NCBI RefSeq assembly: GCF_900636765.1
Contig: NZ_LR134313.1
Location: forward strand, 1,736,001-1,800,000
Length of the DNA stretch: 64,000 nucleotides
Direction: 5' to 3'
Source of the DNA: Neisseria canis
Lineage (GTDB): Bacteria > Pseudomonadota > Gammaproteobacteria > Burkholderiales > Neisseriaceae
The position numbers and the translations under genes were made by a program. Positions 9,815-48,019 of this stretch are shown here, one piece after another (position 1 is the first letter of the stretch; each line of letters begins with the position of its first letter). The notes under the pieces were generated by a model, which saw only the letters and a list, made by a program, of their open reading frames with translations, was not told the DNA's origin and ran no database searches.

Positions 9815-12229
9815 ATGAAATTTAAACATCATATGCCAAGTTCAAAATTTCAACAACATGAGCTCACACATATGCAAGAAATAATAAACCAATCGAAAGA
9901 AATTCCTATGTCGGACATTGAGAATGGTCAATTAATCGCGCAGGAGTTGAAATCAGAAGGAGCTTTCGCTCTTCAGAACCAAGAAACCTACCAATTATTT
10001 ACCGAGCAATGGATTGTTCCGGAGGAACGGATACAAACTGTTTACAATGAAATCGGTTATACGCACTTGGCAAATAACGCTTCCGCTGATGTAACGAATG
10101 ATGCGAGTATTGCCGATCCGCAAGCTGAAGAAATTGCGCCTGTAAGCGATTCCGGCTCTGGAAAAATGCCGTGGATTGTCGGTGGTTCAGGTTTGTTATT
10201 GGCTGGTTTAGCTGCCGCTGCTGCCGGAGGTTCTTCGGGAGGCGGGGATTCAAGTGCAAAATCAGAAAATACAGCCAAGAAACGTATTGTTAGCGAAGAA
10301 AGCTCTGCGCAGCAGCCTGCCGAATCTTCTAAAATAAGAGAAAACGAAACAACAGCTGTCGCGCCTGCAACAGAATTACCGGCTGCTCCGGTAGAAGACA
10401 ATCATTCCGACACCGAACCGGATAATACACAGCAAACGGAAGAAGAAAACAAAACAGCAGGTGCAGCCCAGGCTGCAACCGAATCGTCGGCTCCGGTGGA
10501 GGAAGTTCAGCCTGTTGAGGAAGTTAGTGAAACGCCAAAAACTGAAATTCAAGAAACTCCGGCGCCCACGCCCGAGCGTACGGAAGAACCCGCACCTATT
10601 GTAAAAGATGCTGAGCCTTCTCAAGAAGCAGCCGCAGATCCCGGTCAAAACATTAACCAACCGGCAGAAGCTTCTCCGGAACAAGATCATGCAGCCGACC
10701 AGCCGGCTACAACAGAGCCGAAACAGGAAACAGAAGCTGCACCGGAAATAAGTGAACCGGCTACTGAGCCAACTGCGCCGACTAAAGAGAATGTTGCTCC
10801 GGAAAACACGGAAACCAACAACGGCATCATAGACCGTAACCAACAAGAAAGCCACACTCAGGCAGAGCCTGCTCCTCAACCCGCAGTGAACGGCAAGCAA
10901 AGCGGTTTAACCTTGGATATCGCCAAGCATTTCTATTCTGCCGATGTCATCAAGAAATATATCGATACCATCAGCAAATCAGGCGGTACATTCCTGCAAT
11001 TGCACTTATCCGATGATGATAACTATGCATTTGAGAGCACTGTGCTGAACCAGCGTGCAGCCGACGCAATCCATAATGAAGACGGTACTTACACCAATCC
11101 GAAAACGGGTAAACAGTTTTTAAGCTACGAGCAGATTGCAGATATTGTTTCTCATGCTAAAGCTAAAGGTGTAGAGCTGATTCCCGAAGTGGATACGCCC
11201 AACCATATGGATGCTATTTTTGATTTGTTGACCCTTCACAAAGGAGAGGCTTATGTGAAGAGCATTAAATCAGAAATGGTAAATGACGAAATCAAGATTA
11301 CCGATCCTAAAGCGGTAGACTTCGTTAAAAGCCTTTATAGTGAAGTAATCGGGTTGATGCAGGGCAACAGCAAGCATTTCCATATCGGTGGGGACGAATT
11401 TGGTTACAGTGCTTTAAGTAACCATGAGTTCATCACTTATGCCAATAATTTATCGGAATTCTTGGAAGACAAAGGCTTGAAAACCCGTATGTGGAACGAC
11501 GGCCTTTTGAAAACCAGCTTGAAAGATTTGAATCCTGCCATTGAAATCACTTATTGGAGTTATGACGGCAATCCGGGAGTTGATTCTGTGGCCGCCGATC
11601 GCCGGGCGGAACGTGCAAGCATGAAAGACTTGCTGGACGAAGGCTTTGATGTTTTGAATTACAACTGGTATTACTTGTATTTCGTGCCGGATGAAGGCGT
11701 AACCAATGCCGAAAGCGGTGCTCATATGGCCAGCGATATTCAAGCTACATGGAATTTGGATATCTGGGATGGCCAAGATCATTCCAACAAGCTTTCAGAT
11801 ACCGGTAAAGTAATCGGCTCGTCTCTAACGATTTGGGGCGAAAATGCTGATAATTTGACGGATGACGAGATTTACGAATGGAGTGCCAATGGTTTGGCTG
11901 CTTTGATCAGTAAAACCAATGCGGAATCAATCGACAAAGAAAGCTTGTCAAAAGTAAGCTTGGATATTACCAAAGAGATCCGCGATAACGGTGTGATTAA
12001 CCTGAAGAGTTCAGCTTCCGAACTGGTGGACGTTTCTCTTGCCGACGATTTACTTTCCAGCTATTCGTTTGTATGGCTAAACGGCGATACCGACGACATG
12101 TTGACATTGTCTTCAGACTGGTCGTTCAGCGGAGCTAGCGAATATAAAGATAATGTTAGCTACAGTCTCTATAAGCAGGGTAATAACCACCTCTATGTAG
12201 ATACCGATATGCCGGTGGAGATTCTCTAA
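9815..12229 (+). CDS. Secreted dispersin B-like beta-hexosaminidase (GH20) with adhesin-type ends
   Basis: The core of this 804-residue protein (about residues 360-710) reads like dispersin B, the GH20 enzyme of Aggregatibacter that cuts poly-beta-1,6-N-acetylglucosamine in biofilms. Shared stretches include SGLTLDIAKHFYSADVIKKY, LIPEVDTPNHM, the catalytic pair in HIGGDEFGYS (Asp527-Glu528), EITYWSYDG, NYNWYYLYFVP and SLTIWGEN. Dispersin B itself has little outside this domain. Here an acidic N-terminus leads to a hydrophobic Gly/Ala segment (about 119-138) and a glycine-rich end, then a ~210-residue Pro/Glu/Thr linker. The last ~65 residues (DDMLTLSSDWSF ... LYVDTDM) resemble the C-terminal domain of large type I-secreted adhesins. 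No standard signal peptide. GGGGAA ribosome site supports ATG 9815. Confidence 0.85.
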   Translation: MKFKHHMPSSKFQQHELTHMQEIINQSKEIPMSDIENGQLIAQELKSEGAFALQNQETYQLFTEQWIVPEERIQTVYNEIGYTHLANNASADVTNDASIADPQAEEIAPVSDSGSGKMPWIVGGSGLLLAGLAAAAAGGSSGGGDSSAKSENTAKKRIVSEESSAQQPAESSKIRENETTAVAPATELPAAPVEDNHSDTEPDNTQQTEEENKTAGAAQAATESSAPVEEVQPVEEVSETPKTEIQETPAPTPERTEEPAPIVKDAEPSQEAAADPGQNINQPAEASPEQDHAADQPATTEPKQETEAAPEISEPATEPTAPTKENVAPENTETNNGIIDRNQQESHTQAEPAPQPAVNGKQSGLTLDIAKHFYSADVIKKYIDTISKSGGTFLQLHLSDDDNYAFESTVLNQRAADAIHNEDGTYTNPKTGKQFLSYEQIADIVSHAKAKGVELIPEVDTPNHMDAIFDLLTLHKGEAYVKSIKSEMVNDEIKITDPKAVDFVKSLYSEVIGLMQGNSKHFHIGGDEFGYSALSNHEFITYANNLSEFLEDKGLKTRMWNDGLLKTSLKDLNPAIEITYWSYDGNPGVDSVAADRRAERASMKDLLDEGFDVLNYNWYYLYFVPDEGVTNAESGAHMASDIQATWNLDIWDGQDHSNKLSDTGKVIGSSLTIWGENADNLTDDEIYEWSANGLAALISKTNAESIDKESLSKVSLDITKEIRDNGVINLKSSASELVDVSLADDLLSSYSFVWLNGDTDDMLTLSSDWSFSGASEYKDNVSYSLYKQGNNHLYVDTDMPVEIL

Positions 12230-12252: not shown

Positions 12253-12295
12253 AATGCCTGTCTGAAAGCTGATACAGAGTTTTCAGACAGGCATT
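12253..12295. terminator. DUS-hairpin terminator after the dispersin-like gene
   Basis: Inverted TGCCTGTCTGAA pair with a 15-base spacer, followed by TTTTAT. It ends the dispersin-like gene. Confidence 0.75.
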
Positions 12296-23669: not shown

Positions 23670-24469
23670 TCAAACAGCCTCTTCAAGCTGAGTTCTGTAG
23701 GCCACAGGGCTCAGCTTTTTCAAGTTTAAACTAATGCGCTCATGATTGTAGTAATGTATGTAATCATTGATCACCGTTGTCAGTTCGGCCACCGATAACG
23801 CACCTTCTTCGTAGAAGCTTTCCGTTTTCAATGTGCCGAAGAAACTCTCCATCGGCGCATTGTCCCGGCAGTTGCCTTTGCGCGACATGCTTTGCACAAT
23901 CCCGTTCTCAGCCAATTTCGCCCGATAAGCACCGGTTCGATACGGTACGCCTTGGTCGGAATGCAGCAGCGGCGTTGCCCCTTTCAGACGGCCGAATGCG
24001 TTATCCAACATTTGCGTTACCATGTCACCGTTCGCTCTGCGGCTTAAAGAATAGGCTACAATCTCGCGATTGAACACATCCAATATCGGCGATAAATACA
24101 GTTTGCCGTCTGTGCATTTAAACTCGGTCACATCGGTCAACCACTTATCTCGCGATTTGGCGGCACTAAATTCACGATTGAGAATGTTTGCCGAAGCTTC
24201 CCCTTAGCCTGCGGGCGATAGGTTCTTTTGCTGCGGACTTTGGCTTTTAACCCCAATAAACCCATAATGCGCCCGACTTTCTTTTTGTTCCACGACAATA
24301 CGGCGGCAATCCGCCGTTGACCGTAGCGGCCTTTGTGTTGGCGGTATACTTCGCTCACTGCGGTTTTGGCCGCAGCATCGGGGTCGGGTTTGCCGATAGG
24401 GTAATGGAAACTGCTTTTGGGGATGCCGGCACTGTGCAGCAGATATTTCAGCGGGTGTTTCGCCCTCAA
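23670..24469 (-). pseudogene. IS3-family transposase OrfB, frameshifted
   Basis: OrfB should encode the DDE integrase core. The first part (24137-24469) has the HTH_21-like RQHKGRYGQRRIAAVL and RPQAKGK, then loses frame. The second part (23670-24140) has the catalytic LTDVTEFKCTDGKLYLSPI, LLHSDQGVPY and the glutamate region NAPMESFFGTLK. The join lies at about 24200-24204 in a run of four C (G on the coding strand); the frame EASANILNREFSAAKSRDKW resumes there, so one base appears lost. The element is probably not self-mobile. Confidence 0.85.
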
Positions 24470-24819
24470 CTTTTGAACGGTTTCGCAGCTTTGGCGGCGT
24501 TCCCTTCCTTTTCGTTGAGGGCGTTCATGTGCTTTAGGTAGTCGTTCTCCGCACGCATATAACGCAGCTCTTCAATCAGCTTTGCTTGGGTTTTTTCATG
24601 GTCGGGCTTATCGACGATAAACGGGTTTTTGCGTTTGGTTTTCATGGAGTGCGCCTGAGGGTGTTGCAGTGCGGCGATGCCGCCTTGCCGATAGGCGGCT
24701 ACCCAACGGCGCAGGTGTGTGCGCGAGACGTTGAAGTGCTCTGCGGTGCGCTGTTGGCTGTGCACTTGGTGATAATGGAGTACGGCTCGGTATTTGAAGT
24801 CTAGTGTATATTTGTTCAT
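24466..24819 (-). CDS. IS3-family transposase OrfA
   Basis: This 117-residue protein is the DNA-binding OrfA of an IS150-type element. It opens MNKYTLDFKYRAVLHYHQ and has the helix-turn-helix ERTAEHFNVSRTHLRRWVAA-like region, then a leucine-zipper-like ELRYMRAENDYLKHMNAL. The start at 24819 is chosen over one at 24876, which lies in the terminal repeat. It overlaps orfB by four bases, as expected for a frameshift-made OrfAB fusion. Confidence 0.85.
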   Translation of the reverse strand: MNKYTLDFKYRAVLHYHQVHSQQRTAEHFNVSRTHLRRWVAAYRQGGIAALQHPQAHSMKTKRKNPFIVDKPDHEKTQAKLIEELRYMRAENDYLKHMNALNEKEGNAAKAAKPFKS

Positions 24820-24875
24820 AAGAAAACTGCACCTTTTTAGTCGGAGGGGGTGTCCAACTTTTGGGGTGCAGTTCA

Positions 24876-25153
24876 AATTCTACCAACACATGCGAATAGC
24901 CCAAGCATTGGAGGCGGAAACCTATTTTTGCCGCCCCTACCATTCTTGGGAGAAAGGGCTGAATGAAAATACCAACGGACTCATCCGCCAATATTTCCCC
25001 AAACAAACCGATTTCCGCAACATCAGCCATCGGGAGATACGCAGGGTTCAGGATGAGCTGAACCATAGGCCAAGAAAAACACTTGGCTATGAAACGCCAA
25101 GTGTTTTATTCTTGAATCTGTTCCAACCTCTACTGCCTGAGTGTTGCACTTGA
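24876..25153 (+). pseudogene. IS30-family transposase, C-terminal remnant
   Basis: About 92 codons survive. The end of the DDE domain is clear: YHSWEKGLNENTNGLIRQYF holds the catalytic glutamate, and DFRNISHREIRRVQDELNHR then RKTLGYETPSVLF follow, a typical IS30 C-terminus. The N-terminal DNA-binding part and two catalytic aspartates were removed by the IS3 insertion. The stop codon TGA lies in the right terminal repeat. Confidence 0.85.
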
Positions 25154-45577: not shown

Positions 45578-48019
45578 TCAACCTATTAAATGTTCAGAAC
45601 CGATATTGACATGATGTTCCGCGTCAAATTGCGCAAATACAATTCCTTCTTTTGCGCCTGCTTTTCGGTAAGACAAAGTTTGCTCTTGGCTATTGAAATG
45701 TAAAGATGACAATGCCTCATTGAAAATTTCTTTATCGTTTACCAGCACATCAGACCACTTGAAGCCTTGGCTTCTGTCTTCAAATAAAGAGCGCAGGCCG
45801 CTTAAATCCAGATAATCTTCTTGCGGATGGAAATCTTTAATTATATCCGCTTCGCCTTGCCGGATATCGCTTGCTTTAAAAGCAAATGTGTCGTTCCCTT
45901 CGCCGCCGATAAGCGTGTCTTTACCCAAATTGCCCCATAAATAATCATTTCCCTTGCTGCCTTGCAAAGTATCGTTGCCGGAGGTGCCGTTCAGGAACGC
46001 AAGGCCTTTTGCAGCGCTTTGGGATTCGAAAGCAGACCAATCAAACCCGCTGTCGGCCAAATCAAACTCTTTGCCGGACGGTGTGTACACGATTTCACCA
46101 TCTAATTGCCCGGCCTGCATTTCAATACCTTTTATCCCGATGATTCTGCCTTTGTCGTCTTCTGTTTGAACAATGGCAATAAACGGACGGTCATCCGTTT
46201 CAATTAAGGGGCTGTCGGTAGTATAAGGCGTGATTTCCGAATCGGAGGCATTGGATGCCAGTTTGATTTCGATGCCGTCGGAAAAACCGTCGCCGTCAGA
46301 GTCGGCAAGATTCGGGTTGGTGTCTATCTTGTATTCTTGTATATCGGTTAAACCGTCTTTGTCCGTATCTATATTTTGATAATGTGTATCGGTACGATAT
46401 CCTTGGGTAAAATATTGTTGCATTTTTCTGTTTTTATTATAAAAACTAACCATGTTGTGTTTTCCCGAGTCTTCGAAGAAAACAGTATTTTTGTAAGTTC
46501 CAAGTATATCACCCACCCATTCTCCTTTAATAACAAAAGAAGTGGTTTTTTTATGCTGCTCACCGTTATCCCATATATATTCTTCTAAGAACTTTTCAGT
46601 ATTTTTTTCTGCATTTTTTAATCCTTTGTTTGCTTCGGAGCCAAACCAGGAAAATAGGTCTGATATGACACCGGATTTTAATTTTGCAGGATTAAATAAT
46701 GTGTTACGCACAAAATATTCCTTCAAACCGGGTGTGGATTGGATGTTGTGAGCAACAAAATACTGCGATAAATAGCCACCTAAAGAGTGGCCGGTAGAAT
46801 AAATTTTTTCAGCATTAAATGACTGAATATCTTTAATGGCATATTGTAAATCTTTAACTTGACCGGGGGCTATCTTTAATAGACCAAGTTTCCCATTAGC
46901 TGTCCAGTCGCCCACATTGCTTGATCCGCGAAAAGCAACCACTATATTTTCATAGCCTTTTTCTGTTTTTCCATTACCGAAAATCGCATAGTCCAAACCG
47001 CTTTCTACAATGTCATTGGAATTATGTACTTTCAATAAATGCCAATGCTGAATAAGTTCGGCAACATCTGCTTGACCATTAAATTTTTTGGGATTTCTGT
47101 TAATTTGTTCAATTACCTCTATGGATTGATCGTTGAAAATAGCCTTTAATGATGATTCATCTTCATAGGCTAAGGTGGCAAATATTCTCAAATCACGGTC
47201 TGATACATTCCAGCTGTTTGGGTAAGGGTCTTTTAAATCAATCAAACCATCACCGTCAGTATCTTTACCATAAGAAGAAATGATATTTTTGTTTGAAAAA
47301 TCCGAGTTGTTGGCAATATAAGTTTCTAAGGAAGCTATTTTCTCTTTTGAAGGCGATGCAGTTTTGTTATGTGATTGCAGAATCGGATTACCTTCGGAAT
47401 ATTTCAACATGCCTGTCTGAAAAGGATTATCGACGCTCCCCTTGTGTGTTAGCACGCTGCCGTCTTTATATAGGATGCGGGTGGTTAAAACCGCAGGCTG
47501 GATGGGCGAGGTTTCCGGTGGTGATTCGGGTTTCCGGTGGGTATCGGGTTGTTCTTTAGCGGAAGCCGGCGGTTGGGTGTTTTGTTCGGGCATCTGCGGA
47601 TTATCGGGCTGCCCGGTTTTTTTATCGTCTTTTTCAGCCGGATTTTCGGTTTTGTTGTTTTTCTTCGGTGCATCATCTCCGCCCCCGCCTCCGCCTCCGC
47701 CGCTTGCTAAAGCGGTGATTGCACCCAATGCCCCCAAACCGCCGAGAATTTTTGCGGCGCCGAAACCGGAGGCTGCGGCAGGTTCAACCGACTCTACTTC
47801 CGAAGCCAGTAATGCTTGGTCAGTGGTAGAGGATTGTTCCGAGTTTGCAGATGTCGGGGCATTAGAGGCTGCCGGGCTTTGGGGTTGGAATGGTTGTTCT
47901 TGTGTTGTATTGGTAGGAAGAAGAGGCGTTTCTTCTGCTGCTGATAAGATGATTTCCGTTTCTTTTACGGTATTTTCAGAAATAGTTTGGTTGATTGGAT
48001 GCAGTATCGTTTCGTTCAT
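45578..48019 (-). CDS. RTX-type secreted lipase with Gly-rich N-terminal segment
   Basis: This 813-residue protein has an acidic head, a hydrophobic Gly/Ala segment (about 82-106) ending in eight glycines (107-114), a Pro/Lys/Glu linker, an alpha/beta-hydrolase domain, then calcium motifs. The lipase nucleophile is Ser412 in STGHSLGGYLSQY; VVAFRGSSNVGDW is the oxyanion region. Thrombospondin-3-like DTDGDGLIDLKDPYPN (about 253-268) and DSDGDGFSDGIEI (573-585) bind calcium. RTX nonapeptides GGEGNDTF and kin are at about 678-712, then a serralysin-like C-terminus, so type I secretion is likely. A DUS lies inside at 47409-47421. GGGGA precedes the ATG. Confidence 0.85.
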   Translation of the reverse strand: MNETILHPINQTISENTVKETEIILSAAEETPLLPTNTTQEQPFQPQSPAASNAPTSANSEQSSTTDQALLASEVESVEPAAASGFGAAKILGGLGALGAITALASGGGGGGGGDDAPKKNNKTENPAEKDDKKTGQPDNPQMPEQNTQPPASAKEQPDTHRKPESPPETSPIQPAVLTTRILYKDGSVLTHKGSVDNPFQTGMLKYSEGNPILQSHNKTASPSKEKIASLETYIANNSDFSNKNIISSYGKDTDGDGLIDLKDPYPNSWNVSDRDLRIFATLAYEDESSLKAIFNDQSIEVIEQINRNPKKFNGQADVAELIQHWHLLKVHNSNDIVESGLDYAIFGNGKTEKGYENIVVAFRGSSNVGDWTANGKLGLLKIAPGQVKDLQYAIKDIQSFNAEKIYSTGHSLGGYLSQYFVAHNIQSTPGLKEYFVRNTLFNPAKLKSGVISDLFSWFGSEANKGLKNAEKNTEKFLEEYIWDNGEQHKKTTSFVIKGEWVGDILGTYKNTVFFEDSGKHNMVSFYNKNRKMQQYFTQGYRTDTHYQNIDTDKDGLTDIQEYKIDTNPNLADSDGDGFSDGIEIKLASNASDSEITPYTTDSPLIETDDRPFIAIVQTEDDKGRIIGIKGIEMQAGQLDGEIVYTPSGKEFDLADSGFDWSAFESQSAAKGLAFLNGTSGNDTLQGSKGNDYLWGNLGKDTLIGGEGNDTFAFKASDIRQGEADIIKDFHPQEDYLDLSGLRSLFEDRSQGFKWSDVLVNDKEIFNEALSSLHFNSQEQTLSYRKAGAKEGIVFAQFDAEHHVNIGSEHLIG

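What the first reader, a model, noticed from the sequence alone, without database searches (positions are those of the whole stretch)
9815..12229. A dispersin B-like PNAG hydrolase built into a large secreted frame
The central ~350 residues follow dispersin B closely, including the catalytic Asp-Glu pair (527-528) and the aromatic and WGE motifs. Dispersin B is essentially this domain plus a signal peptide. Here it is set after a Gly/Ala-rich hydrophobic segment and a ~210-residue linker, and before a domain like those ending large type I-secreted adhesins. In a Neisseria relative this could be a surface-tethered enzyme that trims its own or a neighbour's biofilm. I do not know of a described enzyme with this layout.
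Basis: partly seen in the sequence, partly recalled or inferred. Interest (0 to 1): 0.85.

Follow-up and report, generated by a model that had tools for sequence, protein, structure and literature searches.

The report
Surface-type dispersin with altered active site
A Neisseria gene joins an enzyme domain that normally cuts a sticky biofilm sugar to parts resembling large secreted adhesins, but one key active-site residue is changed in a way that sharply lowers activity in the best-studied relative, so it may hold the biofilm sugar more than cut it.

Summary
Window 9815-12229 encodes 804 aa: an acidic N-terminus, a hydrophobic Ala/Gly leader (118-147), a 209-aa linker, a GH20 domain 55% identical to dispersin B over 347 ungapped residues, and a C-terminal module homologous to the ends of large secreted adhesins (hhalign probability 97%). 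The genome has a Lap-type type I secretion operon, a pga operon, and a second, Sec-type dispersin.

DspB Arg27 is Lys371 here; R27K is reported to lower DspB activity 2400-fold. Arg stands in 80 of 80 GH20 loci from other genomes and in all 36 tree rows outside one secretion-type clade; in that clade 11 of 17 rows have Lys, 2 Asp, 4 Arg. The catalytic pair is intact and the domain is under purifying selection (dN/dS about 0.05). In 83 genomes of the family, dispersins occur only with pgaC (18 of 18).

Best reading: a type I-exported, probably surface-held dispersin paralogue that engages the cell's own PNAG with attenuated hydrolysis, possibly mainly binding, beside a secreted Arg27 enzyme. 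Export, tethering and activity are untested; no structure prediction was obtained. New variant of a known kind.

The parts
9815..10165 (+). N-terminal segment, residues 1-117: acidic, no Sec-like hydrophobic start by hydropathy, no Pfam or NCBIfam domain
   Evidence: hydropathy maximum 0.11 for windows starting at residues 1-72 against 1.89 near the start of the Sec-type copy
10166..10255 (+). Leader, residues 118-147: hydrophobic Ala/Leu/Gly stretch then Gly/Ser-rich tail, similar in three RTX proteins of the same genome
10256..10882 (+). Linker, residues 148-356: Ala/Pro/Glu-rich, low complexity, fast-evolving
   Evidence: composition; dN/dS 0.38 and 0.23 in the two of three comparisons that could be scored
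10883..11926 (+). GH20 dispersin-like domain, residues 357-704
   Evidence: PDB 1yht E 1.1e-124; Pfam PF00728; dN/dS 0.045-0.057
10925..10927 (+). Lys371 (AAG), at the position of DspB Arg27
   Evidence: ungapped alignment; codons of four genomes
11393..11398 (+). Catalytic pair Asp527-Glu528 (DspB Asp183-Glu184)
11834..11842 (+). Trp674-Gly675-Glu676 (DspB Trp330-Gly331-Glu332)
   Evidence: sequence
11927..12226 (+). C-terminal module, residues 705-804, homologous to the extreme C-terminus of large adhesin-like proteins
12255..12293 (.). Inverted pair of TGCCTGTCTGAA, a terminator-like hairpin by eye after the gene
45578..48019 (-). 813-aa RTX protein with a hydrolase-like middle and a similar leader: a likely fellow substrate of the type I system

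Best explanation
The gene encodes a paralogue of dispersin B that leaves the cell through the genome's Lap/LssB-type type I secretion system and is probably held at the cell surface by its N-terminal leader. The flexible linker projects the GH20 domain, which engages the PNAG that the same cell makes with its pga operon. Because the -1 subsite arginine is lysine, hydrolysis is probably strongly attenuated, so the protein mainly holds PNAG chain ends, with slow trimming at most. The Arg27 Sec-type dispersin of the same genome would be the working dispersal enzyme. Shown by computation: domain anatomy, residue changes, purifying selection, presence of the type I operon and pga genes, co-occurrence with pgaC. 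Inferred: route of export, surface retention, substrate and attenuation.
For: GH20 core is dispersin-type, with the listed catalytic and aromatic pocket residues kept apart from Lys371. R27K is reported to cut DspB activity 2400-fold, on pNP-GlcNAc (passages). Lys or Asp at position 27 in 13 of 17 rows of the secretion-type clade and in 0 of the 36 other rows of the tree; Arg in 80 of 80 GH20 loci of genome contigs (three of them dispersins also in the tree); by lineage at 95% identity 94 R, 6 K, 1 D, 1 H of 102. dN/dS 0.045-0.057; Lys written AAG or AAA in four genomes. C-terminal module homologous to adhesin ends. Lap-type ABC, HlyD and TolC genes in a row. Leader profile found in 21 of 83 genomes, all 21 with the Lap-type ABC over its cut-off. 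Dispersins in 18 of 83 genomes, all 18 with pgaC. Sec-type copy with Arg in the same genome.
Against: Catalytic Asp-Glu and the aromatic pocket are fully kept, which a pure binder would not need. Arg is common among secretion-type proteins too: 4 of 17 clade rows, the more basal P0053 and P0055, and, counted by record, 16 Arg against 10 Lys and 17 Asp among those with a leader or long N-terminus plus module (the 17 Asp records are one lineage). So the layout does not require a weak enzyme. The 2400-fold figure is for a small aryl substrate, not polymer. Asn at 242 is shared with many Arg-type rows, so it is not specific. No LapG match in the genome, no RTX repeats in this protein, and the C-terminal module also occurs in Sec-type dispersins, so it is not by itself a type I signal. 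The leader is low-complexity and many of its hits are weak. No structure or activity test.
Confidence: 0.47

Rival explanations
1. A fully active surface PNAG hydrolase: lysine substitutes for arginine in this background, and the tethered enzyme trims the cell's own or a neighbour's PNAG.
For: All other listed catalytic residues kept; selection as strong as on the Arg27 Sec-type copies; dispersins only with pgaC in the 83 genomes; secretion-type members with Arg27 exist.
Against: R27K costs DspB 2400-fold (passages); none of the other 11 positions that separate Lys from Arg rows in the clade is a listed active-site residue; the genome already has an Arg27 dispersin.
Confidence: 0.27
2. A GH20 with a shifted substrate, for example a modified PNAG or another beta-linked amino sugar, in which the -1 sugar no longer needs the Arg contacts to O3 and O4.
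For: Change in a residue whose counterparts contact the C3 and C4 hydroxyls of the inhibitor (passage) with the catalytic pair kept; loss of the +1 anionic residues Asp245 and Glu248.
Against: The pocket is otherwise that of dispersins, and the four genomes of the family with the gene all have pgaC.
Confidence: 0.14
3. An inner-membrane-anchored periplasmic protein: the hydrophobic segment is a Sec signal anchor and the GH20 domain works in the periplasm during PNAG export.
For: A single hydrophobic segment; an acidic N-terminus that would stay in the cytoplasm.
Against: A similar leader stands in three RTX-repeat proteins and was found only in genomes with the Lap-type ABC; adhesin-type C-terminus.
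Confidence: 0.12

Closest known systems
Dispersin B of Aggregatibacter actinomycetemcomitans (GH20, PDB 1yht)
   Same: GH20 domain 55.3% identical over 347 ungapped residues; Asp-Glu pair, Trp216, Trp237, Trp330, Tyr187, Tyr278 and Glu332 kept.
   Different: Arg27 is Lys, Asp242/Asp245/Glu248 are Asn/Val/Val; leader, linker and C-terminal module in place of a Sec signal peptide. DspB is 381 aa with a 20-aa signal sequence (passage of PMC11357414).
Dispersin homologues of Neisseriaceae listed in the 2024 review (PMC11357414)
   Same: Same family, including a 770-aa protein of N. shayeganii (passages).
   Different: The passages seen mention only 'N- or C-terminal extensions' and give the critical residues, Arg27 included, as conserved in 31 of 32; 'type I secretion', 'T1SS' and 'domain' do not occur in the main text.
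LapA/Bap-type adhesins of Lap-type type I secretion systems
   Same: C-terminal module (hhalign probability 97.4 to seven adhesin-like ends); Lap/LssB-type ABC in the genome, 880 bits against a cut-off of 693.
   Different: 804 aa, no repeat array, no RTX repeats, no LapG match; an enzyme-type domain in place of adhesin repeats.
Inactive dispersin B used as a laboratory PNAG probe
   Same: Would be its natural counterpart if the domain binds without cutting.
   Different: Engineered; known here only from a reference title in PMC11357414.

Membership tests
GH20 dispersin subfamily | GH20 catalytic domain closer to dispersin B than to chitobiases | tested here: met
   1yht E 1.1e-124 against 2.7e-6 for chitobiase 1qba
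GH20 dispersin subfamily | Catalytic Asp-Glu pair | tested here: met
   D527-E528
GH20 dispersin subfamily | Dispersin-specific His53, Asp116, Trp216, Asp218, Trp330, Gly331 (PMC11883664 section 3.7) | tested here: met
   all six present in the window protein; Asp116 is Gly in many other rows, so it is not strict
GH20 dispersin subfamily, active enzyme | Arg27 contacting the -1 sugar | tested here: not met
   Lys371
GH20 dispersin subfamily, active enzyme | Hydrolysis of beta-1,6-GlcNAc polymer | not testable with these tools
   needs the protein
LapA/Bap-type type I-secreted adhesin | Adhesin-type C-terminal module | tested here: met
LapA/Bap-type type I-secreted adhesin | Lap/LssB-type ABC, HlyD and TolC in the genome | tested here: met
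   not adjacent to the gene
LapA/Bap-type type I-secreted adhesin | LapG-type protease | tested here: not met
   no match to PF06035 at E <= 1 in the own genome
LapA/Bap-type type I-secreted adhesin | RTX repeats or repeat array | tested here: not met
LapA/Bap-type type I-secreted adhesin | N-terminal leader shared with type I substrates of the genome | tested here: met
   three RTX proteins with a similar leader at E 1.3e-4, 3.9e-4 and 0.04; that they are type I substrates is inferred from their RTX repeats
LapA/Bap-type type I-secreted adhesin | Secretion by the type I system and surface retention | not testable with these tools
   needs mutants and localisation

The most novel reading that the evidence does not exclude
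An enzyme turned into an adhesin: in several lineages of Neisseria and its kin a dispersin carried on a type I-exported, surface-held frame has lost the substrate-locking arginine, kept its sugar pocket under selection, and serves as the cell's own PNAG receptor, while a second, Arg27 dispersin does the cutting. A related possibility is that the secreted dispersins, DspB included, descend from such adhesin-like proteins and that the C-terminal extension of many of them is a relic.
Probability: 0.32. Interest if true: 0.8.

Novelty: new variant of a known kind. Interest (0 to 1): 0.6.

Why it matters
Dispersin B is a well-characterised PNAG-degrading enzyme and a drug candidate (passages of PMC11357414), and a 2024 review expects most of its homologues to be functional enzymes. 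A natural, selected substitution of a residue on which DspB depends, in surface-type paralogues beside a secreted Arg27 copy in PNAG-gene carriers, makes a clean question testable: can a matrix-cutting enzyme be converted to a matrix-holding receptor? It would also give natural PNAG-binding reagents and a source for the C-terminal extensions of dispersins.

Tried and rejected
Chitobiase or ordinary hexosaminidase: rejected, dispersin B is the best match by over 100 orders of magnitude from the first hexosaminidase that is not among the four best chains (1.8e-17).

C-terminal module as proof of type I export: not accepted alone. It is also in 15 of the 25 Sec-type rows scanned and, weakly, in a protein with the domain DUF2612. 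Protein search with the module of P0055 found one other dispersin relative besides itself; the profile search of whole genomes succeeded.

A Lap-type protease circuit: no LapG match in the own genome.

Sequencing error at Lys371: rejected, four genomes have Lys with two different codons.

Compensating change for Lys371: 12 positions, Lys371 among them, separate the Lys rows from the four Arg rows of the clade; none of the other 11 is a listed active-site residue. Inconclusive.

Used as a GH20 baseline, with L028, L029 and L030 also placed in the tree.

A broken Sec-type copy in G037 was considered and dropped: its 403-aa frame holds the whole GH20 domain, and the stops reported are probably where that alignment runs past the gene's end (inferred).

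Structure prediction: never obtained, so no fold search was run.

Full report
OBSERVATION. The frame 9815-12229 encodes 804 aa. Its anatomy is: acidic N-terminus 1-117 without a Sec-like hydrophobic start (hydropathy only; no signal-peptide predictor was run); leader 118-147; a 209-aa linker rich in Ala, Pro, Glu, Thr and Gln; GH20 domain 357-704; C-terminal 100 aa. The GH20 domain matches dispersin B (1yht) at E 1.1e-124, ungapped, 55.3% identity; the next structures are three GH20 chains, one named Dispersin, at 3.1e-32 to 3.1e-28.

With the constant offset of 344, DspB Arg27 falls on Lys371; Asp183/Glu184, Tyr187, Trp216, Trp237, Tyr278, Trp330, Glu332, His53, Asp116 and Asp147 are kept; Asp242, Asp245 and Glu248 are Asn, Val and Val. 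Two papers report that R27K lowers DspB activity 2400-fold: PMC11357414 (passages) and PMC11883664 (passage, which names pNP-GlcNAc as substrate and credits Manuel 2007, which I did not read). The review also says D242N impairs endo-cleavage (passage); but Asn at 242 is shared by all 17 rows of the secretion-type clade and by many Arg-type rows. PMC7949127 (passages) reports modest effects of D245N and E248A, mainly on substrates with glucosamine at +1. The predicted result is a weak enzyme or a binder; the figures come from DspB and a small substrate, so this is an inference.

HOW UNUSUAL LYSINE IS. In 80 of 80 GH20 loci from genome contigs the position is Arg (the loci were found by GH20 motifs, and three of them are dispersins also used in the tree). 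In 133 of the 142 held protein records the position could be read: 102 lineages at 95% identity, of which 94 Arg, 6 Lys, 1 Asp, 1 His. The His lineage (P0141) also has Ala for the catalytic Glu, like the Kingella oralis protein described in PMC11357414. A 53-row tree left out near-duplicate records (P0002, P0008, P0010-P0013, P0015-P0017, P0021, P0023, P0025-P0039, P0045, L108, L128), P0057-P0067 and the distant P0056; P0068 and P0069-P0142 were never in it. In it 17 secretion-type rows, some identical to each other, form one clade (support 98/96). There position 27 is Lys in 11, Asp in 2 and Arg in 4. In the 36 other rows it is Arg: 30 Sec-type rows (97/97, DspB included; P0047 and perhaps others are incomplete at the start), P0050, and five more basal rows, of which P0053 and P0055 are long leader-bearing proteins. 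At least 3 changes between Arg and not-Arg are needed; rows of one clade are not independent, so I attach no probability. Against a simple rule: counted by record, proteins with a leader or long N-terminus plus module are 16 Arg, 10 Lys and 17 Asp, the 17 Asp being one lineage; P0068, P0126 and P0127 are such Arg proteins. The two Asp rows in the tree also lack Asn59 and Asp116, though Asp116 is Gly in many Sec-type rows as well. So Arg is lost only in the secretion-type clade (the degenerate P0141 apart), but not in all of it.

SELECTION. Nei-Gojobori dN/dS of the GH20 domain is 0.054, 0.045 and 0.057 against genomes G033, G048 and G037, compared with 0.070, 0.067 and 0.079 for the Sec-type copies; the linker gives 0.38 and 0.23 in the two comparisons that could be scored. 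dS is 0.7 to 2.3 in these GH20 comparisons, near saturation, so the values are rough. Lysine is written AAG or AAA in the four genomes. The domain is therefore not decaying.

C-TERMINAL MODULE. A profile of 18 dispersin C-termini (alignment A4) matched 13 of 369 genomes of the class at E <= 0.01, own genome included, in open frames up to 8401 aa. Of the 19 places outside the own genome I fetched 9 stretches: in 7 of 9 the module is the last part of the longest frame before the stop; in 2 of 9 (L183, L186) it is followed by more protein, and those frames run out of the stretch taken. Two of the 9 (L182, L188) begin like LapA, by my recalled reading. Profile-profile comparison with seven of these ends gives probability 97.4, E 1.1e-11. 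The same module ends 15 of the 25 Sec-type rows that were scanned, the second copy of this genome among them, and is missing in the other 10, all about 400-450 aa (five further Sec-type rows were not in that scan, of which L028 shows the module by eye and DspB ends at the GH20 domain). It may be a relic of a type I-exported ancestor or a domain with its own binding role; the root of the tree is too weak (82/94) to decide.

LEADER AND SECRETION. No domain model matches residues 1-117; over the leader and linker NCBIfam gives only matches far below cut-off. Searching the own genome with residues 1-151 found three more proteins at E 1.3e-4, 3.9e-4 and 0.04: an RTX protein with hydrolase-like middle in this window (45578-48019), an RTX beta-helix protein and an RTX serralysin-like protein; all three have RTX repeats over the Pfam cut-off. 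A leader profile built from 13 leaders, four of them the own genome's, matched 21 of 83 genomes of the family at E <= 0.01, many weakly; all 21 have an LssB/Lap-type ABC over the cut-off, which 47 of 83 have (Fisher 9e-7; within the genus 16 of 16 against 35 of 46, p 0.008; relatedness not corrected). The own operon is TolC-type 427 aa, ABC 724 aa, HlyD 410 aa, with a transposase directly downstream. No LapG match, so release by that protease is not expected. Type I export with N-terminal retention is the simplest reading, not a demonstration.

PNAG CONTEXT. The genome has pgaA-like, pgaB-like (deacetylase plus GHL13) and pgaC genes (587 bits, cut-off 422) and, next in the row, a 131-aa gene in the pgaD position, without a Pfam hit. 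Among 83 genomes of the family, which I take to be Neisseriaceae, 18 have a dispersin at E <= 1e-30 and 24 have pgaC over its cut-off; all 18 are among the 24, and 6 pgaC genomes have none (Fisher 1.8e-13; within the genus 18 of 18 against 22 of 46, 2.6e-9; relatedness not corrected). The secretion-type protein is in 4 of 83 (G000, G033, G037, G048), each with a second, Sec-type dispersin, and in the three others also after the dus gene.

ORGANISM. 65 copies of TGCCTGTCTGAA in the window against 0.01 expected. I recall this as the uptake-sequence dialect of Neisseria wadsworthii; no call confirms the species. Proteins P0004 and P0005 are named Neisseria sp. in their sources.

CONCLUSION. A real, conserved, unusual protein. 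It belongs by descent to the GH20 dispersins, but the arginine on which DspB depends is not there, so I do not file it as an active dispersin. It is built like a type I-exported surface protein but is not a LapA-type adhesin. Seven literature searches (listings with abstract starts) and what I read of three papers (PMC11357414: passages; PMC11883664: outline, sections 3.1 and 3.7 and passages; PMC7949127: passages) showed no description of this layout or of natural Lys27; the library holds open-licence papers only. After checking, the odds of the best reading and the novel case went down by 0.01 each and those of the fully active rival up by 0.01, because the Arg-bearing secretion-type records are now counted.

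Noticed in passing
45578-48019 (-): 813-aa RTX protein with hydrolase-like middle and a hydrophobic Gly-rich leader similar to the finding's; with the RTX proteins in L026 and L027 it makes a set of leader-bearing likely type I substrates.
   Followed up: partly
whole window: 65 exact copies of TGCCTGTCTGAA, many as inverted pairs: a Neisseria uptake sequence in the dialect I recall for N. wadsworthii.
   Followed up: partly
P0057 (651 aa), no window place: Dispersin-type GH20 plus a weak copy of the C-terminal module fused to DUF2612. 159 phage records match the protein; the ten listed match only residues 443-645, outside the GH20 part, several annotated as tail fibre: a possible phage PNAG depolymerase.
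   Followed up: partly
L029: Streptococcus-labelled MAG with a frame of about 2050 aa, open at its upstream end, holding a dispersin domain and ending in an LPQTG wall anchor: another route to a surface-bound dispersin.
   Followed up: no
P0024-P0040: One lineage with Asp at position 27 and, in the two rows aligned, Asn59 and Asp116 lost; linkers of PVENK-type repeats in the two sequences read, and lengths of 652-742 aa across the records.
   Followed up: partly
P0141: Dispersin relative with His at position 27 and Ala for the catalytic Glu; resembles the K. oralis protein in PMC11357414.
   Followed up: no
23670-25153: Transposase pieces in several frames (IS3-like and IS30-like by eye); an IS30-like transposase also lies directly beside the type I secretion operon (L017:8172-9149).
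   Followed up: no
L114-L121, L124, L129: Ten dispersins of about 400-450 aa lack the C-terminal module that the 500-aa Sec-type ones carry.
   Followed up: partly
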